A DNA stretch of 64,000 bases from Gymnothorax reevesii (taxonomy: Eukaryota > Chordata > Actinopteri > Anguilliformes > Muraenidae): positions 15,533,667 to 15,597,666 of the forward strand of contig CM056587.1 of assembly GCA_029721435.1 (NCBI GenBank). The letters are read 5' to 3'. Below, in pieces: positions 7,294 through 45,054 of this stretch. Under the pieces are notes generated by a model. That model was given only the letters and a program-made list of their open reading frames with translations, was not told the origin of the DNA and searched no databases. A program made the translations under genes and the position numbers. Position 1 is the first letter of the stretch, and every line of letters begins with the position of its first letter.

Positions 7294-10200
7294 CTGCAGG
7301 AGAAACACAAAATGGAGGGCAATACCTCACAGTGATTTCCCCGTCAGCTGCGAGTCCAGTACAGATTTACCATGATTTGCAAAATGGAAATAACCTGCAC
7401 CGAGTCACTTACAGTACAGACCAAAAGTTTGGACACACCTTCTCATTCAATGCGTTTCCTTTATTTTCTCGACTATTTACATTGTAGATTCTCACTGAAG
7501 GCATCAAAACTATGAATGAACACATGGAATTATGTACTTAACAAAAAAGTGTGAAATACCTGTAACTGAAAACATGTCTTATATTCTAGTTTCTTCAAAG
7601 TAGCCACCCTTTGCTCTGATTACTGCTTTGCACACTCTTGGCATTCTCTTGATGAGCTTCAAGAGGTCGTCACCTGAAATGGTTTTCACTTCACAGGTGT
7701 GCCTTGACAGGGTTAATTAGTGGAATTTCTTGCCTTATCAATGGGGTTGGGGCCATCAGTTGTGTTGTGCAGAAGTCAGGTTGATACACAGCCGACAGCC
7801 CTATTGGACAACTGTTAGATACATACGTACATAATTCCACATGTGTTCATTCATAGTTTTGATGCCTTAAGTAATAGACAAGGTTAAAGTTTTTGTTATG
7901 GGCAAGGTTAAAGTTTTTTAAAGGTTGGGTGAAGGTTAAGGTGAAGGTCATCAGGTCAAACTTCGGTATCAGTAGGTAGGTCTTGCACCAAGGAGTACAC
8001 ATGCAAAGTATGAAAGCCCTGTCTGTCACGGTTCAAAATTTATGGGCAAGATTAAAGTTTTCTAAAGGTCGGTCAAAGTTCAAGGTCAAGGTCACGAGGT
8101 CAGAAAATTTGGCATCAGTAGGTAGGTCCGGCATCAAGGAGTACACATGCAAAGTATGAAAGCCCTATCTCTCACAGTTCAAAAGTTATGGGCAAGGTTA
8201 AAGTTTTCTAAAGGTCGGTCAAAGTTCAAGGTCAAGGTCACGAGGTCAGAAATTTTGGCATCGGTAGGTAGGTCCGGCATCAAGGAGTACACATGCAAAG
8301 TATGAAAGCCCTATCTCTCACAGTTCAAAAGTTATGGGCAAGGTTAAAGTTTTCTAAAGGTCGGTCAAAGGTGAAGGTGAAGGTCACAAGGTCAGAAATT
8401 TTGGCATCAGTAGGTAGGTCTGGCATCAAGGAGTACACATGCAAAGTATGAAAGCCCTATCTCTCACGGTTCAAAAGTTATAAGCCAGGTTCAAGTTTTC
8501 TAAATGTCGGTCAAAGGTCAAGGTCCCATAGGTCAGAAATTTTGGCATCGGTAGGTAGGTCTGGCATCAAGGAGTACACATGCAAAGTATGAAAGCCCTA
8601 TCTCTCACGGTTCAAAAGTTATAGGCAAGGTTAAAGTTTTTCTGCACGCGGACGGACGCGAACGCCGGGGGTACGACAATAGCTCTCCGGACATTCGTCC
8701 CCGCGAGCTAAAAAGAGGAAAATCCAACCTTTAATTCAAGTGCATTTATTCAGTGGGAAAAAAAATCCCACATTAAGAAATAATTATTTTACATCAAATC
8801 ATGTGTGCCACAATTATTAGCACCCCTGATGTTAATACTTTGTACAATCCCCTTTTGCCAACAAAACGGCACCTAATCTTCTCCTATAATGTTTCACAAG
8901 ATGGGAGAATACAGAAAGAGGGATCTTTGACCATTCCTCTTTGCACAATCTCTCTAAATCATCCAGCGACCTGGGTCCTCTCTTCTGCCCTCTCCTCTTC
9001 AGCTCACTCCACAGGTTTTCAATGGGGTTGAGGTCTGAGAGCTTGATTCTGTGTCTGGTGAACCATTTCTGTGTAGATTTGGCCACATGTTTAGGGTCAT
9101 TATCTTGCTGAAAGACCCAGTGAGTGTTTGTAGCCAAAAAGCTCTATCTTGGTCTCATTTGACCAAAGCACACGGTCCCAGTTGAAGTCCCAGTACCGCT
9201 TAGCGAACTCCAGACGTTAGCATTTATGATTGTGAGTTAGAAAGGTTTTTTCCTTGCATGCCTCCCAAACAGCTTGTTGACATGTAGATAGCGCCTGATG
9301 GTTGTTTTGGAGACTTTGTGACCCCAAGATGCTGCCATTTGTTGCAATTCTTTAACAGTGAGCTTTGGAGAACTTTTTATTTATCTTACTATTCTCCTCA
9401 CTGTGCGTAGTGGCAATATAACCTTGCGTCCTCGTCCAGGCTTGATTACCACTGTTCCAGTTGTTTTAAAATTTCTTAATGATTCCTCTGACAGTAGATA
9501 TGGGCAGATGCAGGCAAGTGGCTATTTTCTTGTAGCCATTGCCTGATTTGTGAAGGTTGACACACATCTGCCTTACTTGAATGGTGTGTTCCTTTGTCTT
9601 TCCCATGTTGAAGAGTGGATAAGAGAAATGGCCTCTGTGTCACGTCATATTTATACCCCAGGGAAACAGGAAGTGATGATTTACTAATTAAATGCTCCTA
9701 GATACTCTGATCAACTTTGTAAACTACTGTAGAAATGACAGAAATACTTAAATTACATTTATTTCCTAGGAATTGTTAGGGGTGCCAATAATTGTGGAAC
9801 AGGTGATTTTATGAAAAATTATTATTTCTTAGTCAGGGATTTTTTCCCCCCTTAAAATTCACTTGAGTTGAAGGTTACATTTTTCAACAATTTTCAGTGA
9901 GAGAGTATGCTTCTGCAATAAAAAATGAATTTATTTTAAGGCTTTTAACAAATCTTAGCCATTAATAATTATGGAGGGCACAGTTGGGTTTAAATGATAT
10001 GCAAATAGTTCTGTTTTTATTTACATTTTACACATCGTCAAAACTTTCATGGACATGGGTTTGTACTCATCAATAGCAAAGTAATGCGAACAAGATTTTA
10101 AAAAATGTAGTAAAGAGGACAATAAAAAGCATACAATTAGCTTCTGAAACAGTCTAACACTGCTGTAGACCTATAAGTAGTGGATCAATTTCCTTTTGAC

Positions 10201-22773: not shown

Positions 22774-25700
22774 CAGTAGAATCCTTTATTTAATTTCTGA
22801 CAGCCAAACAGTGAAACACAAATGCATCAAAGGTAAATCATACAGTGTCTCAGTTTTCAAGGGAATAAAAGCAGACATTTTTCAATTTTTGGTAATAAAT
22901 GATACCATTTCTTGTTTAACAGCCCGCTTCTATGATCCTGAATTTGCCATGGGGTATTTGGCAAACCTATAGGCCTGCGGACCTTTAAAAGTGCAATTTG
23001 TGGGTTCGAACCTCGGCGTACCCACCGGCAGGGGTCGGCAGCTTTTTCAGAGTAGCGCACAATTGGCTATCGCGCTACAGGGTTACAAATTGGGAAGGGA
23101 CTGTCGGATTTGAGTAATCGATAACAGCTTTGTTCGTTGCTCCAGCGCCTCCTGTTGGCCAGACGGGCGCTCGTCAGGAAGACTCCGGCTTGGTTCATGT
23201 CCGGGTATCCTCCGCCCTCGCTCTGAACTTCAAAGATTCAACCAGCGAGTGTATAAGAATCAGTGGCTGACAGGCACGTGCTTCGGAGGAGAGCCGTGAA
23301 CTGTCTTCACTATCCTGAGTTGGCAGCAAGGGGTCGCATACGAGCAAGCTTTGTACATAGTTCCCCAATATGGCATTCCAGATTCGGGTGGGATTGGAGA
23401 TGCCAAATTTAAAAAAAAAAAAAAAAAAAAGTGCAATTTGTGCACTTCCCTTCATACAACATTACAAAATACACCGAGAGTGTGAAATCAGCAGAAGAGT
23501 GAAATGCAGGTTCAGACTAAGAGTTCTGCCCAATATTCTGTTCCAACCATGAGAACATTATCCTGACTCCGCCAGCCTTCGTACTTCCGCTTAATTTCAT
23601 TTCACTTCAGTACTCAGTCTGATCACTCGGAGCTCTGCCTTGTTTACCATCCGCAGAAAATACGCCGGACCAACCAACGAACAGAAGACGTGGCCAAGAG
23701 CCATGATGTAGCAGCTGCGCCGAGTTTGAAATTGTAGTCTCCGAAATCAACAATGGCTACGGACATGGATACCCTGGAGGCCATTTGCTCTGCCGTGGAG
23801 AAAATCCCGGGTATCAGTGGCTTATGGCCACAACAAGATGAATGTTTGGTTAGTTTTTTGAATGGAAATAATGTTGTAGCACTACTCCCTACAGATTGTC
23901 ATATCTACTTAATAGCCATCATGAAATAGGCACCCTGTACATCTCTGCGAGAGACAGGCAAACCATCTCAGCTAGCTTGTAGCTTCTAGTGTTACATTGC
24001 CCGCGAATTTCACACAATTTAAGTTAGCAGTGAACTTTTTCAAAGCCGTGTTTTTGTTCATGTCACAAGAGCTATTCGCTGTCTCAGTGTTATGTTGTCA
24101 TTATCCATGAATAAAATTGCGGTCTGAGACAGCCAAACACTTAAAGCCAAACTGTGCTGCTATAAAGTTAGACACCGAGCTGGGTATGTTGTCAGCGCAA
24201 GTATGGTTAACGGTTCAGTTTTCTTGTTAACACAGATTTCATCCTGATGTAAATAATGCGTTATTCTCACCAATTCTGCCATTGGTTTCGGGTCTCTTAA
24301 GTTTTTTTTTTTTAACAGCAGCAGTATCTGCAGGAAATATGATAGCTCAACAGTTTGTTTCTTGTTTGGAGAACAGTGTTATGGCCCCAATTTGTTATTA
24401 CATTTACAACGTAACAGCAGCAGCAAGGGATGACAGACACAATTTAAAACTCAAACACATTTAATTAACAAACAAAGACTTTAACTAAACTACTGACCAA
24501 GATTGATTAATAACAAGAACAAAAAAATATTTACAGTCCCTTGTTTTGGTGGGGTGGCGTGGTGATGTCCTGGGTTAGGAAAAATGCTCAAATCCAGGCA
24601 AAAATCCACAAAAGAAACTTCTCAGGTTCTGAACAGAAATGACAGGTCTGGTCACATGTATCCTTCTTCTTGCAATTTCTCCTACTACTTTACTGTCTCA
24701 ATTCTTTTCCTTATATACTCTTTTGCAGACCCCACCCACATTTAGACCTCTTTTTTTTATTTTCTGAGACTTGCCCCAGACATGTCCAGGACATGTCTAA
24801 ACATGACTCCAGTCTGAGCTTAACAAAAAAAGGTAAATACTGCCATCTAGTGGCCTATATTCACATTACACCTCCATTCCAAAAGGGAAAAATTTTGACT
24901 CATAAAGGCAAAATTTTTCTTTTCAATACAAAATGGTAAAGTGAACACTTGTCTATATATACATATCATACACATTCAAACACGGGATAAGCAATCAGCA
25001 ATTACATTGTCTGTACCCTTCACATGCATAATTTCCAAGTCAAACTCCTGTAAAATCAAACTCCAATTCAACAATCTCCGATTCTTGCTTTTCATCTTAC
25101 TCAAAAACATTAATGGATTGTGGTCAGTGTACACAATCATTGGCTTTTGTCCTGTACAAACATAAACCTCAAAGTGTTGTAAAGAAAGGACCAGAGCCAA
25201 CAGTTCCTTCTCTATTGTGGAATAGTTCCTTTGGTGGCGATTGAACTTCCTGGAGAAGTATGCCACGGGATGCTCAATGTCATCAGAGTCACTTCTCTGT
25301 AGGAGCACAGATCCACAAGCTTGGTCGCTAGCATCGACCGCGATGGAGCACGGTTTGTTGAAGTCAGGAGATTTGAGCACGGGGAAGTGACACAGCAGAG
25401 ACTTCAGGCGATCGAAGGCTCTCTGGCATGCATCATCCCAGGTGAACTTTACGCCTTTCTTCAGTAGGTTAGTTAGACTGAGAGCAATCTCAGCAAAGTT
25501 CTTGCAGAACTTGCGGTAGTACCCGATCATTCCAAGGAAGCAGCGCAAAGCTTTTTTGTTGTCTGGAACTGGAAAGTCCATGATGGCTTGGACTTTAGCA
25601 TTTATGGGTGCCACCTTACCCTGGCCTATGACGTAGCCAAGATAGGTGACAGTAGCACAACCAAAGTCACTCTTGCTCAGGTTAACAGTCAGGTTAGCCT

Positions 25701-28700
25701 GGGTCAGGCGCTGGAACAACGTCTCTACATCTTTTAGATGTTCTTCCCAGGAGTCACTCCATGTGATCAGGTCATCGATGTACGCACCCGTGTGTGGCAA
25801 TCCGGCGATTGTAGACTGTATCATCCTTTGGAACGTGGCTGGGGCATTTTTCATGCCAAAGGGTAGGACTTCATACTGGTACAATCCAGATGGTGTGGCA
25901 AAAGCAGAGATGCTCTTGGCCCTCTCAGTTAAAGGCACACACCAATAACCCTTCAATAAATCAATCTTGGTCAGAAACTTTGCTTGCCCTACACTATCAA
26001 TACAATCATCAATCCTAGGTATTGGAAACACATCAGTTCTAGTTACAGCATTGACTTTGCGGTAATCTGTACAGAATCTAGTGCTTCCATCAGGTTTTGG
26101 AACTAGCACACAGGGTGAACTCCAATCGGAGTTGGAGGGTCTGATAATATCATGTTTTAACATGTACTCAACCTCTTTCTCAGCAATCTTTCTCTTTTCA
26201 GGATTCATCCGGTATGGATGCTGTTTTATTGGTTTGGCATCACCAACATCTACATCATGAGAGGCTATAGTAACTCTCTTTGGAACATCAGGAAACAAAT
26301 CCTCATATTTCTTGATCAACCTTTCAAACTGATCTCTCTGTGAGGGTTCTAAGTGCTGGAGTTTTACATCAAGATTTTGCAACACTTCAGTGTTTGACAA
26401 TTTACATGAAAGAACTTCAGCTTTAATTCTTGGTTCATCATCTTGAAACTCCCCCTCATCTTCACACGTTTCGACCATTGGAGAATCTGAAGTGACAGCT
26501 GCAACCCTAGCATTTCTGTCATGATAAGGCTTTAGCATGTTAATGTGACACAATTGTTTTGGTTTTCTCCTATCTGGAGTCTTCACAATGTAATTGAGAT
26601 CATTGAGTTTTGTCAGAATTTCATAAGGACCATGAAATCTAGCCTGCAATGGATTGGACTGCAAGGGAAACAACACAAGGACCTTGTCTCCTGGTTTAAA
26701 CTCACGGCTTCTAGCCTTATGATCATACCAAGTTTTCATTTTTCCCTGACTTGATTTCAAGTTCTCTTTGGCAAGGTCACAAGCTGCACGCAATCTTTCC
26801 TTGAACTTGCTAACATAGTCTAACAGACTGATATGCGGCTCTTTCTCTTGCCATTGTTCACTCAATAATAGCAAAGGTCCTCTCACTTCATGACCAAACA
26901 CTAGCTCAAATGGACTGAATCCAGTAGACTCCTGCACTGCTTCTCTAGCTGCAAACAACAGCAAATGAACCCCTTCATCCCAGTCTTTCTCATGGTCATA
27001 ACAATAAGTCCTCATCATTGTCTTGAGAGTGGAATGAAACAGCTCTAAGGCACCCTGACTTTCTGGATGATAGGCACTAGAAAGAATCTGTTTTGCACCT
27101 AGTTCATACACAACCTGCTGAAACAATCCTGAAGTGAAATTGCTACCTTGGTCTGACTGAATTTCCCTGGGAAGACCAAACAACGTGAAGAACTTTATCA
27201 AAGCCTTCGAGATTGCAGTTGCCTTGATGTTACGTAGAGGTATGGCTTCGGGGAATCTGGTAGATGCACACATGATTGTCAACAAATACTGATTTCCAGA
27301 TCTAGTCTTGGGTAATGGACCAACGCAATCAACAATGACCGTAGAGAATGGCTCCCCAAATGCTGGGATAGGCTGCAATGGAGCTACAGGTGGGTTTAAC
27401 TGGTGTTTTCCAACTACCTGACAAGTGTGACAGGTTTTGCAAAAGTTGGAAACGTCTTTCCGAAGCCCAGGCCAAAAGAAGTGTTTCATGATCTTATCAA
27501 CAGTCTTGTTAACACCAAGATGACCTCCTAAAGGTAAACTATGAGCCATTGTTAAGATCTCATTCCTATAGACCTTCGGAACAACAATTTGCCTGACCAC
27601 TGCCCAATCTGCATTGGCAGGGATATCAGGAGGGCGCCACTTCCGCATCAACACACCATCCTTGAGATAATACCCAACTGAAACTGCGTCTATTTCTTTA
27701 TCAGGAAGGGCTCTCCTCTGTAGTACACAAATTTCAGGATCATTAGTTTGCTCCTCAATCAACCGCTTTCTGGACAGAGACAAGTCTGCAGACACATCAG
27801 AATCACCAGACCCATCCGGCTGGCTGAATAGAGAACTGATAAAAGTATCTGATAAGTCCTCAAACGGAGAAACCATAGTAGGCCAATCAGAGTCATGAGG
27901 CGAACCACCTGAGTCCTGACTATTCAATGTACTGGACGGCACCACATCATCTTCTTCTTTAGCCTTCTTGGCCATAGCACGAGTCACTGCGCAAGAAGGA
28001 TACAGAGATGGGTCCTCATCCCCATCTTCAGTGCTCGGCTGTGAAGTAAGATGTACAGGGGGAACTACTTTGCCCCCAGCCAGGTCATTGCCTAGCAACA
28101 GAGAAACACCCTTTATAGGTAGACTTGACATAAGTCCCACCTTTACCTGTCCTGTAACTAAATCTGACTTCAAGAATATAGAGCGCAGGGGTACAGATAC
28201 AGTCCTCCCTTCAATACCTTGTACAAGTATGAAATCCCCTGAAGCGGTCTCATCACGTAACTCCAAAGAGTCCATCAACAAAAGTGACTGAGAAGCTCCG
28301 GTATCCCTTAGGATATATATGGGGACAGGAGTAGTATGCTCATTCAGAGCCACAAATCCCTCTGACACAAATGGAAGAAATTCCTCCCTCACGAAGTCAG
28401 CTGTATCAGGCTTTTTAGCCCCACAAGAAGCAGGTAATTTAGCAGATCGGTTATCTACTACAGGGGTTTCTAACCTTGTTTTCACAAAGGCATTTGGTTT
28501 GGTATCCTTTTCTTTTTCTTTCTTAGCTTTAAGGAACCAACAGTTAGTTGTAACATGACCAGATTTCTTGCAATAACTGCAAACTAGACCACTTTTGTCA
28601 CTGTCAGCTTTCACACTTTGATCAGACCTGTTACTGGATTTCTGAGCACCATCACCAGATTTGTCTTTGGGTGAGGAATCTTGGGTATCACCATAACCCT

Positions 28701-31700
28701 TTTTCTGAAATTGGGACCATCTATTGTTACTGCTAGACTGAAATTTGGACTTATGTGTGAGAACATATTCATCTGCAAATTTGGCAGCTGATTGCAAATT
28801 CAGTGCTTGCTTCTCATTAAGGTAGGTCTTAACATCATCCTTAACACAGTTCTTGAATTCTTCAACTAACACCATCTCTTTTAGTGAGTTGAAATCATCC
28901 TTCACCTCCATAGAAGTACACCAGCGCTCAAAGCAAACTTTCTTCTCATTAGCAAATTCCACATAAGTCTGATTTTCAGATTTCTTCAGACCTCTGAATT
29001 TCTGTCGGTAAGCCTCTGGAACCAACTCATAAGCTCTCAAAATAACCTTTTTGACAACCTCATAATCAGAGGAATCATCGGCAGACAAAGCCGAATAGGC
29101 TTGTTGAGCTTTACCCTTGAGGACAGTTTGCAACATCAGAGGCCAGTGCTCCTTTGGCCACTGGCAACTCTTTGCTACCTTTTCAAAACACTGGAAATAG
29201 TTGTCAACATCCTTTTCCGAAAATGGAGGCACCAATTTTACCTCCTGGCTAGCCCGAAATTTATTTTCAGTTGCTATTTTAATTTTTAGTTGCTCCATTC
29301 GGAGTCTTTCTTCTCTATCAAATCTCTCTAATTCAAAATCTCTCTGTCTCTGTCTCTCTCTTTCTGCTCTTTCCTCTTTCTCTCTTTCTTTTTTCTCTTC
29401 TCTTGCAAATTTTTCTAACTCAAATTCTCTTTCTTTCTCTTTTTCCTCCCTTTCTTTCTTCTCTTCTCTAGCTAATTTTTCCAACTCAAACTGCCTTTGT
29501 TTTTCTTTTTCTTCCCTTTCAATCTCTAGCATTTTTAATTTAAGTTCCATTTCTATATTTGGATTTTCCACTGGAAACTGTTCCAGATCTCCTGGTGCAA
29601 ACACATTTTCATCAATGTAATATTCAACTATCTCTCTAGCCAGTCTTGCTTTTCGCATGGCTGGTTTTACCTCTGTCAGCTCCAAATGTCTGCATATTTC
29701 CAACAGTTCGGTCTTTTTAAAAGACTTCAAAACCCCTACGGTTGGTGATGCCAAGAAATCATCCATTGCTGTTGTCAATATATTTATATAGGAAAATTCA
29801 CAAAAACAATTTTACAATCTGAAATGTTAGATTTTTAATAAATGACTCACAAAATGGTCTATCCCGGACCTTGAGCCCCCAATTTGTTATGGCACCAATT
29901 TGTTATTACATTTACAACGTAACAGCAGCAGCAAGGGATGACAGACACAATTTAAAACTCAAACACATTTAATTAACAAACAAAGACTTTAACTAAACTA
30001 CTGACCAAGATTGATTAATAACAAGAACAAAAAATATTTACAGTCCCTTGTTTTGGTGGGGTGGCGTGGTGATGTCCTGGGTTAGGAAAAATGCTCAAAT
30101 CCAGGCAAAAATCCACAAAAGAAACTTCTCAGGTTCTGAACAGAAATGACAGGTCTGGTCACATGTATCCTTCTTCTTGCAATTTCTCCTACTACTTTAC
30201 TGTCTCAATTCTTTTCCTTATATACTCTTTTGCAGACCCCACCCACATTTAGACCTCTTTTTTTTTTTATTTTCTGAGACTTGCCCCAGACATGTCCAGG
30301 ACATGTCTAAACATGACTCCAGTCTGAGCTTAACAAAAAAAGGTAAATACTGCCATCTAGTGGCCTATATTCACATTACAACAGAAAGAGCACCTTTGGT
30401 TCTTTTAAGTGAATGAGTGAAGGCTAAAATTTGGTAGATGGGTATATGTACGGGTACAGTATTAACATTAATGTACTGATCAGTTTGTTTTCGCTGAATT
30501 CCTGGTATGAAGGACTGTAGTTTCCAGCGGAAGTACTAGGCGGCTGAGCCGGTGCATAACATGCGTCATCGCCAAACGTTTAGCATTAGTTTGCGGGTAC
30601 ACCATTGATTTTAAACTTCTGACAAGCCCCCACCCACCAGGAAGTAAACACTTGTCAATCACTTCTACCGCTACTCTGTGTATGAAGCAAAGCTAAGTAG
30701 CGGAGTCTGGTTTTACCAGGCTATGAGGACATGTTCATCAGAGGAAATCTGCATTCAGAATGTAGAGCTAATAAGCAAAATCAGTGATCCAAGTTTTTGG
30801 TTGGAAAACAATAACAACATAACAAACCATTTACTTCCTGACCCTGGAACTTCACAGTACTCAAAGTAAGGAGGAAAGGCCAGTACCAGAAAGGAAAAAA
30901 GATGAACTCAAAAAATTTGATATAAGAGACTAACTGTTTTCCTGAATGACTGCATACACACCTTCGCCCTTCGTCCCAGTACGCCCTGATTGGGACTCCT
31001 CAGGAAGAGGGGGTGCGTCCGAAGGTACGGGCTCCTCCCTAACCAGGGTAACCAGGTGCTCCAGCTCCTCTCGAGTCTGAAAGGGCCAAGAAAATTACAT
31101 ACGTTAAGAACAGCTGCATTTCCATGGGTGCTTTTCATTATGCTGACTTAAGCTTCCTCGCCTCCCCACTCCTCCCATACCTGGACATCTTTACCCCTCA
31201 GCCATCATGCAGGATCCTCCAATACTTTAATTGTACCTCCAGGAGACAAGGAGTGAGGAGGGAGGAGACTTCTGGAGGAGCTCAGAGCGAGGAAACGCTA
31301 GTGTATCCAATGTGGAAGTCTTTTATCAACTGGGGGGACATGTAATGCCAAACCTTATCTTAATTGGGCCAAGGATTTCTCATCTGGCAGCTTTGACTCC
31401 TCCAGCCTTGCAGCACTTCCTCGCATCTCGCTCATACTCACTGGAGGAGCTGAGATGCGAGGAAAAGACGCAAGTGTGGATGGCGAGGAGACATGCTGGC
31501 GTAATGAAAAGCACCCTTGTCTCAGGAGAAAGTGAATCAAAATTAAAGGCAACAACAAAATTTAATGCGCCGGAGGATGACTGTTCAACCAGGTGCTATG
31601 AAGGCAAATCGGATGAGCCATACTGTTAAACGAGACATAATGAGTGAAATTGATTATCCATCCTTGTATTTATTGCTCTTTCAATAAAATTTGAAGGGCT

Positions 31701-32227
31701 GGTATCATTGCTAACTTAGATGACAAAGAATTGTGTAATGCATTTACATTTTCATTATCAAATTACTGGGTATTTCACAAGCAGAATTGTACAGTTGCCC
31801 GGATAGAAGCCAACAGCAAAATCCAAAACTTTTTACTTCAGACCATTCTCCAGATATGGAAAGGTTCCTGGTCATTTTACAAACTCAGTAATCTAGTTTT
31901 GTGACCCAGTACCCAATCTGTATGTTGGAGACAGGATTTCATGGTGAAAGGCAGGCATTTGTTAATGCTAGGCTGAGTGCTGCTCACCAGTTTACTGAGG
32001 TCATCGTTCCCCCCCACGTGGACGCTGTTGAAGAATATCTGAGGCACAGTGCTGCGACCAGTGAGCTGCTTCACCTGGGCCCACAGCTCCCCGTGCTCGT
32101 TCATATCCACATCATGCAACAAAAGCCCAAGCTCCGAAAGGCGAGATTTGGCCTGCTTACAGTGTGGGCAGCCTGTCACAGAATATATCGTAACCCGCCC
32201 TTTCTGGCCTTTCTCTGTTCCTTCCAT
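7165..32227 (-). CDS. Glutaredoxin-DEP-DUF547 multidomain protein, 10 coding exons
   Basis: Coding exons in transcript order: 32227-31988, 31076-30962, 21328-21176, 19312-19142, 16099-16026, 15176-14979, 14161-14024, 13185-13096, 12890-12747, 7293-7165. They total 1452 nt, giving 483 residues plus stop. Every junction has AG/GT and the phases agree (0,1,1,1,0,0,0,0,0). The N-terminus (residues about 10-80) is a glutaredoxin with CPHC active site, TVP motif and GG motif. A linker rich in E and P follows, then a DEP domain (about 122-210), then DUF547 from about 225 to the end, with the motifs FFINIYNALVIHG, YLIGG and CGAKGCPP. The glutaredoxin suggests glutathione-dependent thiol chemistry and DEP suggests membrane or G-protein-linked targeting; the role of DUF547 is unknown. 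No signal peptide or membrane segment is seen, so it is probably cytosolic. Function is inferred from domains only. Confidence 0.85.
7406..7868. mobile_element. Tc1-like element, internally deleted
   Basis: The left end reads 'cagtacagaccaaaagtttggacacacc', a widespread fish Tc1-like terminus. The right part 'taattccacatgtgttcattcatag' mirrors 'tatgaatgaacacatggaatta' at 7510-7531. Coding sequence is almost gone. It lies in the last intron of the glutaredoxin-DEP-DUF547 gene. Confidence 0.65.
7869..8640. repeat. 146-bp tandem repeat (minisatellite), about 5 copies
   Basis: The word 'gtacacatgcaaagtatgaaagcc' recurs at 7995, 8141, 8287, 8433 and 8574, so the period is 146, 146, 146 and 141 bp. 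Units differ by a few substitutions and the first and last are the most diverged. Each unit contains 'aaggtcaaggtcac' and 'ggcatcagtaggtaggtc'. A distinct 3' tail follows at 8641-8715. Confidence 0.92.
8641..8715. repeat. GC-rich hairpin tail following the minisatellite
   Basis: The tail 'gacggacgcgaacgccggggg..' runs into 'agctctccggacattcgtccccgcgagct' and then 'aaaa'. The outer agctc/gagct pair forms a short stem. The array plus this tail looks like one dispersed repeat. The stem followed by CTAA recalls Helitron-like 3' ends, but that assignment is only a suggestion. Confidence 0.4.
8716..9990 (-). mobile_element. Tc1-like transposon, decayed
   Basis: The ends are inverted: 'gaaaatccaacctttaattcaag' at about 8717 against 'ttgagttgaaggttacatttttc' at about 9865-9889, and 'caattattagcacccc' against 'ggggtgccaataattg'. 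The minus-strand transposase starts at about 9606 (MGKTKEHTIQVRQ). It is frameshifted in the middle and ends in a 101-codon open piece at 9137-8832 with the DDE-domain block FQQDNDPKH and PIENLWSELKRR. The coding span is shorter than the usual 1.0 kb, so part is deleted. It is intronic. Confidence 0.8.
9991..11566. repeat. Intron DNA with a diverged tandem duplication
   Basis: Mostly unrecognised intron. Two related units appear to start at about 11009 ('aaagcttccatttgag') and 11361 ('aaagctttcatttgag'). Each is followed by 'ggtgcnctc' and then an 'aaggtcaaggtca'-like stretch, so the period is roughly 350 bp with strong divergence. Nothing coding was found. Confidence 0.35.
11567..12560 (+). 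pseudogene. Tc1-like transposase relic
   Basis: Plus-strand wreck of a Tc1 transposase. Recognisable blocks are 'LWTDEAKFEI' at about 11966-11995, 'GGNIRFWGS' at about 12081-12107, and 'FQQDNDPKR' at about 12234-12260. Frames shift repeatedly and a 13-base A run lies at about 11894. It is in the last intron of the glutaredoxin-DEP-DUF547 gene, opposite to the gene. Confidence 0.7.
12747..12890 (-). CDS. Exon: DUF547, C-terminal part
   Basis: 48 codons between acceptor cctcag|GACATT and donor AAG|gtaata. It reads IDSQLRIAAEAFL, then KLSQIFQWYKGDFG, the usual end of DUF547. Confidence 0.88.
13096..13185 (-). CDS. Exon: DUF547, Cys-containing core
   Basis: 30 codons between acceptor ccactag|GTGGCG and donor AAG|gtaaaa. 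It carries EPLIHFALNCGAKGCPPIKTY. The H and two C residues are among the most conserved positions of the family. Confidence 0.88.
14024..14161 (-). CDS. Exon: DUF547, middle part
   Basis: 46 codons between acceptor tttgcag|TTC and donor AAG|gtacct. It contains VSYLIGGEVFTLQDIENGVLR and the KPFSKSDPRL block. Confidence 0.9.
14979..15176 (-). CDS. Exon: DUF547, N-terminal part
   Basis: 66 codons between acceptor cgttag|TCGGTG and donor CGG|gtaagt. It contains VDYKAM, LQRVDLLGLS and EKLAFFINIYNALVIHG, the signature block of DUF547. Confidence 0.9.
16026..16099 (-). CDS. Exon: helix leading into DUF547
   Basis: A 74-nt exon with acceptor tgtttag|CTGCT and donor AAG|gtatca. With the G left over from the previous exon it reads A-AELSEILRNMMLRLYADHIS. 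Such a helix normally precedes DUF547. Only this phase is open, and it joins the preceding exon directly. Confidence 0.8.
16100..19141. other. Intron with CA microsatellite
   Basis: Intron between the DEP and DUF547 exons. A (CA)n tract with CG interruptions occupies about 17662-17715. No other gene is supported. An open frame at 17226-16960 on the minus strand was considered as an exon and rejected. Confidence 0.6.
19142..19312 (-). CDS. Exon: second half of DEP domain
   Basis: The exon follows acceptor ccctgtag|ACAGG and ends at donor gtatgt. RSKAIETSKILMDRKFFNSV, then FEEGNALFRLVEHD, complete the DEP fold. The split codon GAC joins it to the previous exon. Confidence 0.88.
19313..21175. 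other. Intron within the DEP domain
   Basis: A/T-rich intron sequence. No repeat or gene recognised. Confidence 0.5.
21176..21328 (-). CDS. Exon: first half of DEP domain
   Basis: The exon follows acceptor ctaacag|AAATT and ends at consensus donor gtaagt. Residues DDFVDTMAEF, VIENHWRGLKVYKNSFTG and QLLDWLMKVKGL match the first helices and beta-hairpin of a DEP domain, including the conserved F/Y-x-G-x-x-L-L-W pattern. Confidence 0.88.
22707..22763. repeat. (CT)n microsatellite
   Basis: An uninterrupted run of CT dinucleotides of more than 50 bp lies in the large intron between the linker and DEP exons. The surrounding 21329-22986 shows no gene. Confidence 0.95.
22987..23442 (+). mobile_element. 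tRNA-derived SINE with target-site duplication
   Basis: The direct repeat 'aaaagtgcaatttgtg' flanks the insert at 22987-23002 and 23427-23442. The insert opens with a pol III B-box-like 'ggttcgaacc', continues with 'cccaccggcaggggtcggcag' and 'cgcacaattgg', and ends in a run of about 20 A at 23411-23430. The A-box is missing, so the copy is truncated at its 5' end. Confidence 0.75.
23753..23929 (+). pseudogene. RecQ-like helicase N-terminal fragment (58 codons)
   Basis: An open frame starts MATDMDTLEAICSAVEK and contains LWPQQDECLVSFLNG followed by NNVVALLPTD. This resembles the Q motif and the start of Walker A (LPTGxGKS) of RecQ-type superfamily 2 helicases. The ATP-binding loop breaks at the D replacing G and a stop follows 14 codons later. 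GC content around the start is higher than in the flanks. It could be the first exon of a captured or transposon-borne helicase gene, or a dead fragment. It is antisense to the host intron. Confidence 0.4.
24377..24870 (-). repeat. 3' LTR of the Gmr1-like element
   Basis: 494 bp. It matches the other LTR over its whole length except one substitution near the right-hand start of the alignment (cccc versus cacc) and two homopolymer differences. On the minus strand it carries a TATATAA box at 24717-24711 and an AATAAA at 24761-24756. Confidence 0.95.
24976..29778 (-). CDS. Gag-Pol polyprotein of Gmr1-like retrotransposon
   Basis: One 1600-residue frame with no stop or frameshift. The N-terminal ~55 residues are helical and SAP-like. 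About residues 75-170 form a highly charged E/K/R coiled coil. About 180-345 is a gag capsid-like region. A CCHC zinc knuckle (CSYCKKSGHVTTNC) lies near 396-410. The aspartic protease motif DTGA lies near 493. Integrase follows with its HHCC zinc domain (about 744-785) and catalytic D, D, E near 817, 877 and 911. Reverse transcriptase follows with YIDD near 1332, then RNase H (AVDASDQ near 1480, TIEKELLAL, VYTDHNPL) to the end. Integrase before RT is the reverse of normal Ty3/Gypsy order. All catalytic residues are present, so the element may be active. There is no env and no chromodomain seen. Confidence 0.95.
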   Translation of the reverse strand: MTTAMDDFLASPTVGVLKSFKKTELLEICRHLELTEVKPAMRKARLAREIVEYYIDENVFAPGDLEQFPVENPNIEMELKLKMLEIEREEKEKQRQFELEKLAREEKKEREEKEKEREFELEKFAREEKKEREKEERAERERQRQRDFELERFDREERLRMEQLKIKIATENKFRASQEVKLVPPFSEKDVDNYFQCFEKVAKSCQWPKEHWPLMLQTVLKGKAQQAYSALSADDSSDYEVVKKVILRAYELVPEAYRQKFRGLKKSENQTYVEFANEKKVCFERWCTSMEVKDDFNSLKEMVLVEEFKNCVKDDVKTYLNEKQALNLQSAAKFADEYVLTHKSKFQSSSNNRWSQFQKKGYGDTQDSSPKDKSGDGAQKSSNRSDQSVKADSDKSGLVCSYCKKSGHVTTNCWFLKAKKEKEKDTKPNAFVKTRLETPVVDNRSAKLPASCGAKKPDTADFVREEFLPFVSEGFVALNEHTTPVPIYILRDTGASQSLLLMDSLELRDETASGDFILVQGIEGRTVSVPLRSIFLKSDLVTGQVKVGLMSSLPIKGVSLLLGNDLAGGKVVPPVHLTSQPSTEDGDEDPSLYPSCAVTRAMAKKAKEEDDVVPSSTLNSQDSGGSPHDSDWPTMVSPFEDLSDTFISSLFSQPDGSGDSDVSADLSLSRKRLIEEQTNDPEICVLQRRALPDKEIDAVSVGYYLKDGVLMRKWRPPDIPANADWAVVRQIVVPKVYRNEILTMAHSLPLGGHLGVNKTVDKIMKHFFWPGLRKDVSNFCKTCHTCQVVGKHQLNPPVAPLQPIPAFGEPFSTVIVDCVGPLPKTRSGNQYLLTIMCASTRFPEAIPLRNIKATAISKALIKFFTLFGLPREIQSDQGSNFTSGLFQQVVYELGAKQILSSAYHPESQGALELFHSTLKTMMRTYCYDHEKDWDEGVHLLLFAAREAVQESTGFSPFELVFGHEVRGPLLLLSEQWQEKEPHISLLDYVSKFKERLRAACDLAKENLKSSQGKMKTWYDHKARSREFKPGDKVLVLFPLQSNPLQARFHGPYEILTKLNDLNYIVKTPDRRKPKQLCHINMLKPYHDRNARVAAVTSDSPMVETCEDEGEFQDDEPRIKAEVLSCKLSNTEVLQNLDVKLQHLEPSQRDQFERLIKKYEDLFPDVPKRVTIASHDVDVGDAKPIKQHPYRMNPEKRKIAEKEVEYMLKHDIIRPSNSDWSSPCVLVPKPDGSTRFCTDYRKVNAVTRTDVFPIPRIDDCIDSVGQAKFLTKIDLLKGYWCVPLTERAKSISAFATPSGLYQYEVLPFGMKNAPATFQRMIQSTIAGLPHTGAYIDDLITWSDSWEEHLKDVETLFQRLTQANLTVNLSKSDFGCATVTYLGYVIGQGKVAPINAKVQAIMDFPVPDNKKALRCFLGMIGYYRKFCKNFAEIALSLTNLLKKGVKFTWDDACQRAFDRLKSLLCHFPVLKSPDFNKPCSIAVDASDQACGSVLLQRSDSDDIEHPVAYFSRKFNRHQRNYSTIEKELLALVLSLQHFEVYVCTGQKPMIVYTDHNPLMFLSKMKSKNRRLLNWSLILQEFDLEIMHVKGTDNVIADCLSRV
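29861..29881 (-). promoter_or_regulatory. Primer-binding site, tRNA-Pro-like
   Basis: Starting a few bases after the 5' LTR, the minus strand reads TGGGGGCTC, then AAG, then GTCCGGGAT. Without the three inserted bases this equals the 18-nt site known to pair with the 3' end of tRNA-Pro. Confidence 0.6.
29885..30380 (-). repeat. 5' LTR of the Gmr1-like element
   Basis: 496 bp; the promoter-side LTR for the minus-strand ORF. Its TATA-like TATATAA lies at 30224-30218. The T-run is 3 bp longer and one A-run 1 bp shorter than in the other LTR. Confidence 0.95.
30385..30961. other. Intron between retrotransposon and linker exon
   Basis: Nothing recognised. The minus-strand continuation of the linker exon beyond 30961 is noncoding. 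Confidence 0.5.
30962..31076 (-). CDS. Exon: acidic/proline linker
   Basis: It encodes 38 codons plus one base after acceptor ttcag|ACT, ending at donor gtgtgt. It begins TREELEHLVTLVREEP and is then rich in P, E and S. It carries no known domain and links glutaredoxin to DEP. The phase fits both neighbours. Confidence 0.75.
31126..31516. mobile_element. MITE with GGGTGCTTTTCATTA termini
   Basis: The left end 'gggtgcttttcattatgc' is inverted at the right end 'gcgtaatgaaaagcaccc', and the similarity extends about 35 bp inward, around the gcgagga words. The interior is noncoding. It sits between the glutaredoxin and linker exons. No clear target duplication was found. Confidence 0.7.
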
Positions 32228-35040: not shown

Positions 35041-36002
35041 ACTTCACTAGACCTCTGAAGGTGTGCTATGGTATCATGCAGCAAGATTTGAGCACCAGTT
35101 CCTTCAAGTCCTGTAAGTTGCAAGGTAGTCTCAATTTTTCCAGTGCATCCCATAGATGCTTGATTGTATTGAGAACTTTTCAATTTTGAGGCTAAGTAAA
35201 CACCTTGAACGCATTGTGTTTGTCAAGCCATTTCTGAACCATTTTTGCAGGGTGCGATATCCTGCTGAAAGAGGCCACTGCCATTGGGGAATACCATTTC
35301 CATAAAGGGGTGTACTTGGTTAGGTAGGTGATGTCAAATTAACATCCACCTGAATGGAAGGACCCAAAGTTTCACAGCAGAACATTGCCCAAAGCATCAC
35401 ACTGCCTCTGTTGGTTTGTCTTCTCATTGTGCATCCTGGTGGCAGCCATCCACATGATGTAAAAGAAAGCATGATTTATCAGACCAGGCCACCTTCTTCC
35501 ATTGCTCTGTGGCCCAGTTCTGATGCTCACATGCCCACTGTAGGCCCTTTGGACAGTGCACAGGGGTCAGCATGGGCACACTGATAGGGCTACAGCTACG
35601 CAGTTCCATAGGCAACAAACTGTGATGCACAGTGTGTCCTGAGTCCTTTTGATCAGAACCAGCATGAACTTTTCCAGCAATATGAGCTATTATAGTTCTT
35701 TTGTTGGATCGAGCCACACAGGCTAGCTTTCGCTCCCCATGCACATCAGTGAGCCTTGGCCTCCAATGACCTGGTTCACCGCATTTCCTTCCTTGGATCA
35801 CTTTAGGTAGGTTCCTCTGCAATGACCTCTGCAGACTGGGAATACCCTACAAGAGCTGCTGTTCTAGTTATCACAATTTGGCCCTCGCCATAGTCGCTCA
35901 CATCATTACGCTTTCCCATTTTTCCTGCTTCCAACTTCAACTTTTAGGACAAAATATTCTCATGTTGTCTAATATATTCCACCCATTGACCAGTACCTTT
36001 GT
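35041..36002 (-). pseudogene. Tc1-like transposase relic (minus strand)
   Basis: A 132-codon open piece at 35822-35424 contains LTPVHCPKGLQWA-EHQNW and WSDKSCFLLHHVDG, the central DDE region of a common fish Tc1-like transposase. Flanking minus-strand sequence continues the family in other frames towards 35041, and the 5' leader extends to about 36000 ('acaaaat..tctaatatattccaccca'). Multiple frameshifts. It abuts another Tc1 relic at about 36003. Confidence 0.75.
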
Positions 36003-42774: not shown

Positions 42775-45054
42775 GTGAGTTCGCTCGTTGTCAGTCCTAA
42801 GTAACGTTAAGCATATGTCTTCGATTATTTTAGCCAGCGGTGTCCCTTGAATTTTGCCGTATGCTTGTCTATCTGATTACATTAATGATCACAATGTGTT
42901 TATGTTTGTGTTCAGAGGCAATGGACGCAATTCTGACTTACAGTCAGAGTCCTGAAGAATTACTGCAGCGAAGGAAGGTGTATCGTGAAGTCATATTTAA
43001 ATACCTGGCGAGTGAAGATATTGTCATGCCTCCCACCGCAGAGAAGAGTCAGCTTGTGAAGAAAACACTTCAGTTTTGGGGTCGGGATATGAAGGTAATG
43101 ATAATCAATTTCTAAATGAATTGTTGAATTCTGTTCACGGTAGAATGGTACAATGTACCACAGTGCTAAAGTATTTGGCCCCTCCAGTTTTCTTCTATTC
43201 TTATTTAAATTTTTAAAACATCCAACTAATTTTAATATAAGACAAAGGCAACGCGAGTAAACACAAAATGCAGCTTCTAAATGATCCTTTCACTTATTGA
43301 AGGTAGAAAGTTGCTGAAAACCTGCACCACCCATGTGAAAAAATGATTGCCCCCACATAAACCTAATTACTGATTGTGCCGCCCATGGCAGGAACTACTG
43401 TGAACAAACGTTTGCAATAAGTGGCAATTAGTCCGTCAGATTTGTCTGGCCTGCTCTCGTTGGCAGAATTGTTATAACTTGGCCGCATTGGAGTTGTTGA
43501 TGCACTCATTGAGGAATTATGGTGGGAAATCGACTTCTGGGAAGGTTAATCACTGTTTCAGGTTTTTTTTTTTTTTTTTTACATATGTATAGAATGGCTC
43601 ACCATGGCTCTTTGGAGTCCCAGAGCCTTAGAAATTGATTTACAACCCTTTCCAGACTGATGGATGCCAATGATTTTCATTAAATGTCTCTGTTGAATTT
43701 ATTTAGATTGCAGCATAATGTGCTGCTTTCTACTTACTTCTCATTGTCAGACAGGTTTCATTTAGGCGATGTTTAGATTCAGCACGGTTGGCAGTAATCA
43801 AGCCTGGCTTGGTCTTGTGAAATTGAACCCAATTATTAATTATATTTGTTTAATGCCTTGATTTGGTGACTCAGGGATATTACATTTTCATATGGGGCCA
43901 GGAAAAATGCTATCCAACTTTTCCCTTAATAAACTGCATTTTGTGTTTACTGGGGTTAGCTTTGTACCATGTTAGAATTACTTTGATAGTGTGACAAATA
44001 TGCCAAAATAGAAGGAATTGTGAAGGTGCAAATAATTTCTCAGTATTGTATTTGCAAAGGGCTATTTTACTGTTATTGCTCTGACTGCAAAGGAATTAGC
44101 AAAGTAGAATATTATATCTTGTGTGCACGCACTGGAGTGGTTGTGGGTGGCGCCGAGTTGCGTTTTGATGTGTTTTTTGTGTGCTGAAAAATAAATTGTT
44201 CAAATGCATGTTAAAAACAGCATTGTGATCTGACACACTATGTCAATAGATGAGCGGAACATACTTGAACACATTCTGTAAAAGAAATAGAAGGGAAAGT
44301 ACAATAATAAACACTTCCTTTTTGAGGATATTGCACATTTTAAATTCAATCAGATACCATCAAAATTCACTTCCCATCAGCTGGAAGTGAGTGTATAACC
44401 TTTTCTATAGTATGACTTCTGTTCATGCAAAAAAAAAAAAAAAAGAATTCCATTTTGCTATTTATCATTATCGTTATATTTTAGGCGTCTGAGGCAGTTG
44501 ATGCCAATAAGGATCCTCCAAATGCAAGGGCAGAGGTTGCAGAGCCTGACTACATGATGCTGGGTAAGCAGTTCAGCCAGTGGTTCTATCAGCTCCTCAA
44601 CACCCAGAATCCAGCACTGGGTCAGAAGCCGTTAGACTGGGGTCCGCAGCATTTCTGGGAGGACGCACAGCTGACGCTTTCATACAGTACTGACATGCAG
44701 CAGACAGACATGTTTGAGGGGGCAGAGCTGGTCAGCCATCGTTTCCTTGCCCTGGTGCGAGACGAAAGGCTCTATTTCTGCCCAAACCTGGAGCCTCACG
44801 GGCTGATGTGCGGTGCGAGCCCCCACGGGCTCGTGGCAGTGGCAGTAGCGGGAACCATTCACCGCGAGCGAACCTGCTTGGGGATCTTCGAGCAAGCGTT
44901 TGGCCTCATTCGCTCCCCACTGGACGGTCACAGTTGGAAGATCAAGTTTACTCGTTTGAAAATAAGACAGCAGGAGGGAGGAGAGGAAATGGCATCACCT
45001 GCCTTAACATGTGACTCCAAAGGACTGTTGGCGCTGTGTGAACCTGGATCCTAA
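42648..45054 (+). CDS. c3orf38: C3orf38 homologue (conserved uncharacterised protein)
   Basis: Three coding exons: 42648-42774, 42916-43094 and 44485-45054 (876 nt, 291 residues). Junctions are AGAG|gtgagt, ttcag|AGGCA, AAG|gtaatg and tttag|GCG, and the phases fit. The product starts MSGLSKRELDGCR and includes LIALCDTVTNRM, ILTYSQSPEELLQRRKV, REVIFKYLASEDI, DWGPQHFWEDAQL, PHGLVAVAVAGTIHR and TCLGIFEQAFGLIRSP. All these blocks match the human C3orf38 protein family, probably the one called DUF4518. Its function is not established. The ATG is the first in the exon and the N-terminus matches the human protein. The length is a little under the human form owing to a shorter C-terminus. An I-type LINE ends about 150 bp upstream. 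Confidence 0.9.
42916..43094 (+). CDS. c3orf38: c3orf38 coding exon 2
   Basis: 179 nt between acceptor tgttcag and donor gtaatg. It encodes EAMDAILTYSQSPEELLQRR through FWGRDMK. Confidence 0.9.
43150..44060 (-). mobile_element. Tc1-like element remnant in c3orf38 intron 2
   Basis: The left end is 'aaagtatttggcccctccag' and the right end 'ggtgcaaataatttctcagtattgta'. Between them are family words such as 'gagtaaacacaaaatgcag', 'cagaattgttataacttggcc', 'gggaaggtt..cactgtt', 'ggagtcccagagccttagaaat' and 'aactgcattttgtgtttac'. The transposase sense is minus; most of it is deleted. A T-run of 18 lies at about 43563. Confidence 0.75.
44485..45054 (+). CDS. c3orf38: c3orf38 coding exon 3 (terminal)
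   Basis: 190 codons including the TAA. It holds the conserved C-terminal domain of the family (FSQWFYQLLNTQNP to WKIKFTRLKI). The last 20-odd residues are less conserved. Confidence 0.92.
   Translation, partial: ASEAVDANKDPPNARAEVAEPDYMMLGKQFSQWFYQLLNTQNPALGQKPLDWGPQHFWEDAQLTLSYSTDMQQTDMFEGAELVSHRFLALVRDERLYFCPNLEPHGLMCGASPHGLVAVAVAGTIHRERTCLGIFEQAFGLIRSPLDGHSWKIKFTRLKIRQQEGGEEMASPALTCDSKGLLALCEPGS

What the first reader, a model, noticed from the sequence alone, without database searches (positions are those of the whole stretch)
24976..29778. Retrotransposon with integrase ahead of reverse transcriptase (Gmr1-like order)
The single ORF reads gag, CCHC knuckle, protease (DTGA), integrase (HHCC, then D, D, E), reverse transcriptase (YIDD), RNase H. 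Normal Ty3/Gypsy elements place integrase last. The inverted order was described for Gmr1-like elements of cod and other deuterostomes. Here the frame is unbroken for 1600 codons and every catalytic motif is present, so this may be an active reference copy.
Basis: partly seen in the sequence, partly recalled or inferred. Interest (0 to 1): 0.75.

Follow-up and report, generated by a model that had tools for sequence, protein, structure and literature searches.

The report
Gmr1-like retrotransposon, recently amplified, integrase first
This is a complete jumping element of a kind already known from fish and other animals, with its integrase gene placed before its reverse transcriptase; it is one of thousands of recent copies in this genome, and small differences at the copies' primer sites seem to record which host tRNA primed them.

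Summary
On the minus strand, 24377-30380, lies a complete LTR retrotransposon: 494/496-bp LTRs (1 substitution, 2 indels), a 4-bp target duplication and one open frame. The frame reads Gag (SCAN-type capsid, CCHC), protease, integrase, reverse transcriptase, RNase H. Integrase-first order is the known mark of the Gmr1 clade of Ty3/Gypsy, so this is a new member of a known kind. Of the best 120 relatives listed, 118 share the order, and integrase-first elements form one side of a branch in both RT and integrase trees. It is no rare or reference copy: the 112 best integrase matches in the host genome are all 99-100% identical, and the LTR/primer-site junction occurs 5,600 times in four exact forms (sister families may be included).

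Less expected is the primer-binding site. Most junctions, and this copy, carry a 3-nt insert (AAG) relative to tRNA-Pro. A quarter lack it; in a sample of 38 copies these are scattered. Bare sites end in T or G, matching two tRNA-Pro 3'-end types found in the genome. This fits the retroviral rule that progeny inherit either the tRNA's or the parent's primer site (inferred, not shown). Gag's charged stretch also varies between copies, mostly by 7 residues.

The parts
29885..30380 (-). 5' LTR, 496 bp, TGTA...AACA; TATATAAG at LTR position 157, ATTAAA at 408
24377..24870 (-). 3' LTR, 494 bp; 1 substitution and 2 indel events (4 nt) against the 5' LTR
24373..24376 (.). target-site duplication, one copy (ACAG on + strand)
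   Evidence: exact 4-bp duplications in 14 of 16 LTR pairs
30381..30384 (.). target-site duplication, other copy (ACAG on + strand)
29861..29881 (-). primer-binding site TGGGGGCTC-AAG-GTCCGGGAT: complement of the tRNA-Pro 3' end with a 3-nt insert
   Evidence: sequence; genome counts; tRNA-Pro in host
24976..29766 (-). single gag-pol frame, ATG to stop, 1596 codons
29233..29574 (-). Gag charged (E/K/R) helix-like stretch; its measured part is 50 to 104 residues long in 31 copies, mostly in 7-residue steps
28747..29019 (-). Gag capsid C-terminal part = SCAN domain (PF02023)
   Evidence: E 2.4e-11
28540..28581 (-). CCHC zinc knuckle CSYCKKSGHVTTNC
28291..28308 (-). aspartic protease motif RDTGAS
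   Evidence: protease piece matched in 105 of 120 relatives
27412..27582 (-). integrase H2C2 zinc-binding domain
27064..27336 (-). integrase catalytic core (rve match); D817 and D876 of the 1600-residue frame lie in it, E912 (27043-27045) just after it
26527..26631 (-). integrase C-terminal domain with GPY motif (Integrase_p58_C)
25627..26103 (-). reverse transcriptase (RVT_1), YIDD at 25771-25782
25042..25365 (-). RNase H (RT_RNaseH)
24871..24880 (-). purine-rich tract GGAATGGAGG (one T) directly before the 3' LTR; the last 18 bases are the same in 16 of 16 LTR pairs

Best explanation
A complete, recently inserted member of the Gmr1 clade of Ty3/Gypsy LTR retrotransposons. The LTR promoter drives one RNA. 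It is translated into one polyprotein whose own protease is taken to free capsid, integrase and RT/RNase H. Particles copy the RNA from a host tRNA-Pro, and integrase joins the DNA to a 4-bp staggered target. The integrase-first order is most simply ancestral to the whole clade, not a local rearrangement here. The family has recently spread to thousands of copies. At each copying the new primer site can come either from the parent RNA (the inherited AAG-bearing form) or from the tRNA (the bare forms). Shown: anatomy, LTR pairs, target duplications, copy counts, primer-site forms and tRNA-Pro 3' ends in the host. Inferred: processing, packaging, priming, integration and activity.
For: Domains and order. 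Relatives: 118 of the 120 listed hits (of 3836) have integrase before RT; 91 of 120 list SCAN (my count). Trees: integrase-first rows are one side of a branch in RT (100/99) and integrase (99/97). Own genome: 40 full-length LTR hits at 97-100% (40 scored of 3403 candidates). 16 LTR pairs with divergence 0 to 0.0081, mean 0.0043, and 14 of 16 exact 4-bp duplications. 112 integrase matches scored of 26,699 candidates, all 99-100% identical, 111 without a stop there, 56 with open frames of 1590 aa or more (one of these the copy with the stop). Junction counts: AAG-T 4190, bare-T 1172, bare-G 206, AAG-G 32. Bare sites scattered: 6 copies of 38 need 6 changes on the best tree. tRNA-Pro 3' ends of A59 and C59 type in the host. 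Primer-site rule: PMC4549124 (abstract).
Against: No expression, particle or transposition data. The RT-first rows of the trees are from one pseudoscorpion plus Ty3, Ty3 is a long branch in both careful trees (the RT run warned of it), and the cod Gmr1 sequence was not included. 5 of 89 RT-first labelled proteins also matched the capsid piece by BLAST (not examined). Junction counts may include sister families with the same LTR end. In the tree of 38 copies the well-supported branches force only 2 primer-site changes, and shuffled labels give 5.7 on average, so the scatter is seen on a weakly resolved tree. If half of all products took the tRNA form, the AAG form should fade quickly, yet it holds three quarters; this is unexplained. 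Recombination between copies could also scatter the forms. C59 was seen in two dispersed loci that ARAGORN does not call, one a recognisable but decayed tRNA-Pro(CGG), and in an array that I could not fetch.
Confidence: 0.93

Rival explanations
1. An ordinary RT-first Gypsy element whose order was changed by a local rearrangement or an assembly error.
For: Only the general fact that most Gypsy elements are RT-first (recalled).
Against: 118 of the 120 listed relatives have the same order; integrase-first rows are one side of a branch in both trees; 112 scored copies in the genome carry the same integrase, 56 in open frames of 1590 aa or more.
Confidence: 0.01
2. A Ty1/Copia element, which has integrase before RT by nature.
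For: The order alone.
Against: RT matches RVT_1 and RT_RNaseH, integrase has H2C2 and the p58-type C-terminal domain, Gag has SCAN; the best solved match is Ty3 RT (4ol8) for RT and Ty3 (7q5b) for integrase.
Confidence: 0.005
3. This particular copy is already dead or silenced despite its open frame.
For: No expression data; subtle substitutions would not show as stops. Its LTR-to-early-gag stretch is at most 95% identical to the 37 others compared.
Against: Open frame, all named catalytic motifs present, near-identical LTRs.
Confidence: 0.4
4. The primer-site forms are spread by recombination or gene conversion between copies and not by copying of the tRNA.
For: Bare and AAG forms are scattered over the tree, as recombination would also give; template switching is common in retroelements (recalled).
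Against: The bare forms match the tRNA-Pro 3' end, and the 18th base varies (T or G) almost only in bare sites: G in 206 of 1378 against 32 of 4222 AAG sites, with matching A59 and C59 tRNA-Pro 3' ends. Copies are not independent, so the Fisher p is descriptive only.
Confidence: 0.3

Closest known systems
Gmr1 clade of Ty3/Gypsy (Gmr1 of Atlantic cod and relatives)
   Same: Integrase upstream of RT, as described in passages of PMC8220671, PMC3587641 and PMC2774666; Ty3/Gypsy-type enzymes; SCAN-type Gag (PMC4592553, PMC3424704, passages); single frame.
   Different: A separate family: the best protein relative listed is 77% identical over RT-RNase H. Two things are seen here that I did not see in those passages: a majority 3-nt insert in the primer site, and a Gag charged stretch that changes length mostly in 7-residue steps.
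Gmr families of pufferfish (Gmr1-Gmr4, PMC11117352 Table 2, passages)
   Same: 6058-6465 bp, LTR 337-518 bp, one gag-pol frame of 1506-1634 aa, recent insertions; here 6004 bp, 494/496 bp, 1596 aa.
   Different: There 47 sequences in ten compact genomes; here thousands of primer-site junctions in one 2.17-Gb genome.
Ty3 of yeast
   Same: Best solved match for RT (4ol8, 7q5b) and for integrase (7q5b).
   Different: Ty3 has RT before integrase.
HIV/SIV primer-site variants set by tRNA variants (PMC4549124, abstract)
   Same: Progeny take either the tRNA's or the parent's primer-site sequence; variant tRNAs give variant sites.
   Different: There seen in replicating virus; here inferred from genomic copies of a retrotransposon.

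Membership tests
Gmr1 clade (Ty3/Gypsy) | Integrase upstream of RT in the same polyprotein | tested here: met
Gmr1 clade (Ty3/Gypsy) | RT and integrase both of Ty3/Gypsy type | tested here: met
   (best solved chains Ty3 4ol8/7q5b)
Gmr1 clade (Ty3/Gypsy) | RT and integrase group with other integrase-first elements apart from RT-first ones | tested here: met
   37 integrase-first against 13 RT-first rows; the RT-first rows are one pseudoscorpion plus Ty3
Gmr1 clade (Ty3/Gypsy) | Grouping with the cod type element Gmr1 itself | not tested
   no sequence named Gmr1 among the 120 + 120 rows listed
Gmr1 clade (Ty3/Gypsy) | SCAN-like capsid in Gag | tested here: met
   PF02023 E 2.4e-11, 43.7 bits against a cut-off of 27
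Gmr1 clade (Ty3/Gypsy) | Gag and Pol in one frame, no env | tested here: met
   the stop is 105 bp from the 3' LTR, leaving no room for env after pol
LTR retrotransposon | Paired LTRs with TG..CA ends, primer site, purine tract, target duplication | tested here: met
LTR retrotransposon | Transposition | not testable with these tools
   no expression or insertion-polymorphism data; near-identical copies show recent past spread only
Ty1/Copia | Copia-type RT and integrase | tested here: not met
   RVT_1, RT_RNaseH, Integrase_H2C2, Integrase_p58_C

The most novel reading that the evidence does not exclude
Thousands of genomic copies of one retrotransposon keep a readable record of their primers. 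An inherited primer site with a 3-nt insert, for which no tRNA has been found (the genome search for one did not complete), is repeatedly overwritten, in about a quarter of junctions, by the complement of two host tRNA-Pro types that differ at position 59. The element would thus be seen to switch between tRNA isodecoders, while an imperfect primer site still spreads as the majority.
Probability: 0.55. Interest if true: 0.5.

Novelty: new member of a known kind. Interest (0 to 1): 0.3.

Why it matters
The integrase-first order is not new; the element confirms how stable that arrangement is across the relatives compared. What is useful is the family size. With 5,600 exact LTR/primer-site junctions in one genome, primer use, primer-site inheritance and Gag repeat-length change can be measured as population statistics without an experiment. 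The open question made testable is how often a new copy takes its primer site from the tRNA and how often from the parent RNA, and why a site with a 3-nt insert stays in the majority.

Tried and rejected
Searches for relatives in viral contigs and prokaryote genome contigs gave no confirmed match. Rfam gave no match in the window and ARAGORN no tRNA. A blastn and tblastn of element pieces against the rest of the window gave no second copy, only chance-length blastn matches of 12-19 bases. The ideas of a local rearrangement and of a Copia element were rejected. A structure prediction was considered and not run, because the Pfam SCAN hit already answered the question. After the quick RT tree two long-branch rows (P0172, P0239) were dropped before the careful trees. 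The trees used 36 of 114 integrase-first and 14 (then 12) of 89 RT-first labelled proteins; 31 more had no label and 5 of the 239 no long RT match. Primer-site sets: 3 of 41 copies gave no match to the search word and were left out of the tree of 38; one search shows that two of these (L075, L076) carry the AAG form with a point difference and one has no site. In 4 of the 38 the LTR start was not found and 500 bases upstream were used. 10 of 41 gave no coil length. A first coil script found only the window because its anchor word was too narrow; it was corrected. Host identity was not pursued.
Full report
What is there. The frame reported at 24976-29778 is real and lies on the minus strand. 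From its first ATG (29766) it runs 1596 codons to a single stop. It sits in a complete element, 24377-30380, 6004 bp, with LTRs of 496 bp (5', 29885-30380) and 494 bp (3', 24377-24870) that differ by one substitution and two indel events. The ends are TG...CA and the target duplication is 4 bp. The LTR holds TATATAAG at position 157 and ATTAAA at 408. The last 18 bases before the 3' LTR, including GGAATGGAGG, are the same in 16 of 16 LTR pairs from the genome.

Domains, searched piece by piece: Gag with a SCAN domain (E 2.4e-11, 43.7 bits against a cut-off of 27), then CCHC and RDTGAS motifs. Integrase follows (H2C2 1.7e-21, rve 6.9e-11, p58_C 5.1e-12), then RVT_1 (1.1e-30) and RT_RNaseH (4.5e-34). 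The integrase triad is D817, D876, E912 with 35 residues between the last two. The protease piece has no Pfam hit. The best solved match is Ty3 for RT (4ol8, 7q5b) and for integrase (7q5b); in 7q5b the two lie in the opposite order (RT/RNase H 583-1008, integrase 1088-1445).

Relatives. A search on the RT/RNase H part gave 3836 proteins, the best 120 listed, the first 77% identical. By best BLAST position, partial matches counted, 118 of the 120 have integrase before RT, one has RT before integrase (P0015, a pseudoscorpion), and one shows no integrase. 91 of the 120 list SCAN (my count of the listing); the other 29 are P0015 and proteins of at most 1405 residues. A second search from P0015 gave 120 listed rows, all named Cordylochernes; I see SCAN in none of them. 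Of the 239 proteins held after both searches, 114 could be labelled integrase-first, 89 RT-first, 31 neither, and 5 had no long RT match; 88 of the 114 and 5 of the 89 match the capsid piece by BLAST, and those 5 were not examined. In trees of 50 rows (37 integrase-first with the window, 13 RT-first with Ty3), integrase-first is one side of a branch for integrase (99/97) and for RT (100/99). Weak points: the RT-first rows are from one species plus Ty3, Ty3 is a long branch in both trees and the RT run warned of it, and the cod Gmr1 sequence is not in the set.

Literature. That Gmr1 elements carry integrase upstream of RT is in print (passages of PMC8220671, PMC3587641, PMC2774666). They are known from cod and Ciona and from an annelid (PMC8220671), crustaceans (PMC3587641), frogs (about 200 copies in Silurana, PMC4131045) and pufferfish (one gag-pol frame, 6.1-6.5 kb, PMC11117352); all of this from passages. 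The SCAN domain is said to derive from Gag of a Gmr1-like element (passages of PMC3424704 and PMC4592553, citing Emerson and Thomas 2011, which is not held). Goodwin and Poulter 2002, the first description, is recalled and was not read. So the element is a new member of a known kind.

Copies in the host genome (G000, 2.17 Gb). An LTR search scored 40 of 3403 candidates and gave 40 full-length LTRs at 97-100% and two short pieces. The 40 form 16 pairs (window included; one pair, C1:193.33 Mb, is only 4.2 kb apart) and 8 unpaired LTRs. The pairs differ by 0 to 0.0081 substitutions per site, mean 0.0043. I give no age, as no rate is known for this host. Exact 4-bp duplications flank 14 of the 16. 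One of the other two (C8:18.95 Mb) is flanked by a purine tract and a primer site, so it appears to lie in an LTR-sharing array; the other (C3:91.17 Mb) has unmatched flanks. Five of the 8 unpaired LTRs have 4-bp duplications on both sides and are solo LTRs; the other three adjoin a primer site or purine tract, so their partners were not in the list. An integrase search scored 112 of 26,699 candidates, all 99-100% identical; one has a stop within integrase, and 56 (that one included) have open frames of at least 1590 aa. One RT hit also carries a neighbouring RNase H of this family at 94-98% (L006). These copies were picked as best matches, so they are biased to young ones. The window copy is therefore one of many, and its own capacity to move is untested.

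Primer site. The window has TGGGGGCTC-AAG-GTCCGGGAT after the 5' LTR. tRNA-Pro would give TGGGGGCTCGTCCGGGAT (recalled). Among the 16 LTR pairs 12 have the AAG form and 4 the bare form. Exact junction counts in the genome: AAG with 18th base T 4190, bare with T 1172, bare with G 206, AAG with G 32; reversed-pattern controls were 0 in all four. Bare forms are 1378 of 5600. The junction pattern may also catch sister families with the same LTR end. G at the 18th base (counted without the insert) is found in 206 of 1378 bare sites and 32 of 4222 AAG sites, odds ratio 23 (copies are not independent, so the p value is only descriptive). In 38 of 41 copies examined, 6 are bare and need 6 separate changes on a tree of LTR plus leader and early gag that leaves the primer site out; shuffled labels need 5.7 on average. 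The well-supported branches of that tree (5 of 35) force only 2 changes. So the bare sites do not appear as one lineage, on a weakly resolved tree.

After seeing T and G at the 18th base I expected host tRNA-Pro with A and C at position 59 (tRNA numbering recalled). The pattern GGTTCNANTCCCGGACGAGCCC occurs 372 times, and the 100 listed places show AAAT, AACT and AATT forms. Of 8 loci checked, ARAGORN calls three tRNA-Pro (two TGG, one AGG), all with A59, one tRNA-Arg (L113) and nothing in four, among them both C59 loci. One C59 locus is a recognisable but decayed tRNA-Pro(CGG) with CCA. 88 of the 100 listed places lie in an array on C20, mainly C59 type, that I could not fetch. The published rule for HIV and SIV, that progeny inherit either the tRNA's or the parent's primer site and that a variant tRNA explains a variant site (PMC4549124, abstract), would explain the bare-T and bare-G forms. 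It does not explain why the AAG form keeps three quarters. Recombination remains a rival. Whether any host tRNA carries the AAG-type end is not known, as that search did not complete. I did not search for earlier reports of primer-site variation in Gmr1-like elements beyond.

Gag. Between an N-terminal domain and the capsid lies a charged stretch (114 residues in the window copy) with a 66-bp tandem repeat. In 41 copies read over this part, 31 gave a length for its measured part, from 50 to 104 residues. 23 of 31 fall on 75+7k and 7 of 31 on 90+7k, one (50) on neither. So copies that are 99-100% identical in integrase gain and lose 7-residue units in frame, as a coding minisatellite would, which would keep a helix register (inference). 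Among 74 integrase-first relatives with room before the capsid, 64 have a charged stretch of 40 residues or more.

How it works, steps shown and inferred. Shown: LTRs, primer site, purine tract, domain order, target duplication size, many near-identical copies. Inferred from the family: LTR transcription, polyprotein cleavage, tRNA-Pro priming, integration. Inferred from counts: primer sites overwritten by tRNA. Verdict: observation confirmed, interpretation supported, kind already known; the added value is the size of the family and the primer-site record.

Noticed in passing
own genome C20 from 29.87 Mb, minus strand: A large array of tRNA-Pro-like 3' ends (372 in the genome, 367 of them on the reverse strand; 88 of the 100 listed places lie here), mainly C59 type. 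Not fetched, so it is not known whether the genes are intact.
   Followed up: partly
L108, L109, L113, L114 around position 1500: About 35-40 bases of tRNA-Pro 3' sequence ending in CCA, joined to unrelated DNA; in L108, L109 and L113 the CCA is followed by ATT, as in the element's own junction. They may be copies in which reverse transcription ran beyond the usual 18 bases of the tRNA.
   Followed up: no
window 29368-29520: 66-bp coding tandem repeat in gag; in other copies the stretch changes length mostly by 21 bp (7 residues).
   Followed up: yes
own genome C8:18.95 Mb and C18:57.88 Mb: Copies about 5.55 kb apart that may share LTRs head to tail (the C8 pair is flanked by purine tract and primer site; the C18 pair is seen only as two integrase matches), as left by recombination between LTRs.
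   Followed up: partly
window 44554-45051 (+): Exon with DUF4518 (PF15008, E 8.4e-57); by recall the C3orf38 family.
   Followed up: no
window 31880-32227 (-): Glutaredoxin-domain open stretch (PF00462, E 7.3e-16) 1.5 kb from the element.
   Followed up: no
window 35427-35822 (-): Remnant of a Tc3-type transposase (PF01498, E 3.8e-6, below the cut-off).
   Followed up: no
window 7895-8640: Satellite-like array, 146-bp unit, 5.2 copies, 91% matches.
   Followed up: no
P0076, P0080, P0090: Gmr1-like proteins filed under bacteria (Candidatus Thiodiazotropha, Campylobacter); most likely animal DNA in bacterial assemblies.
   Followed up: no
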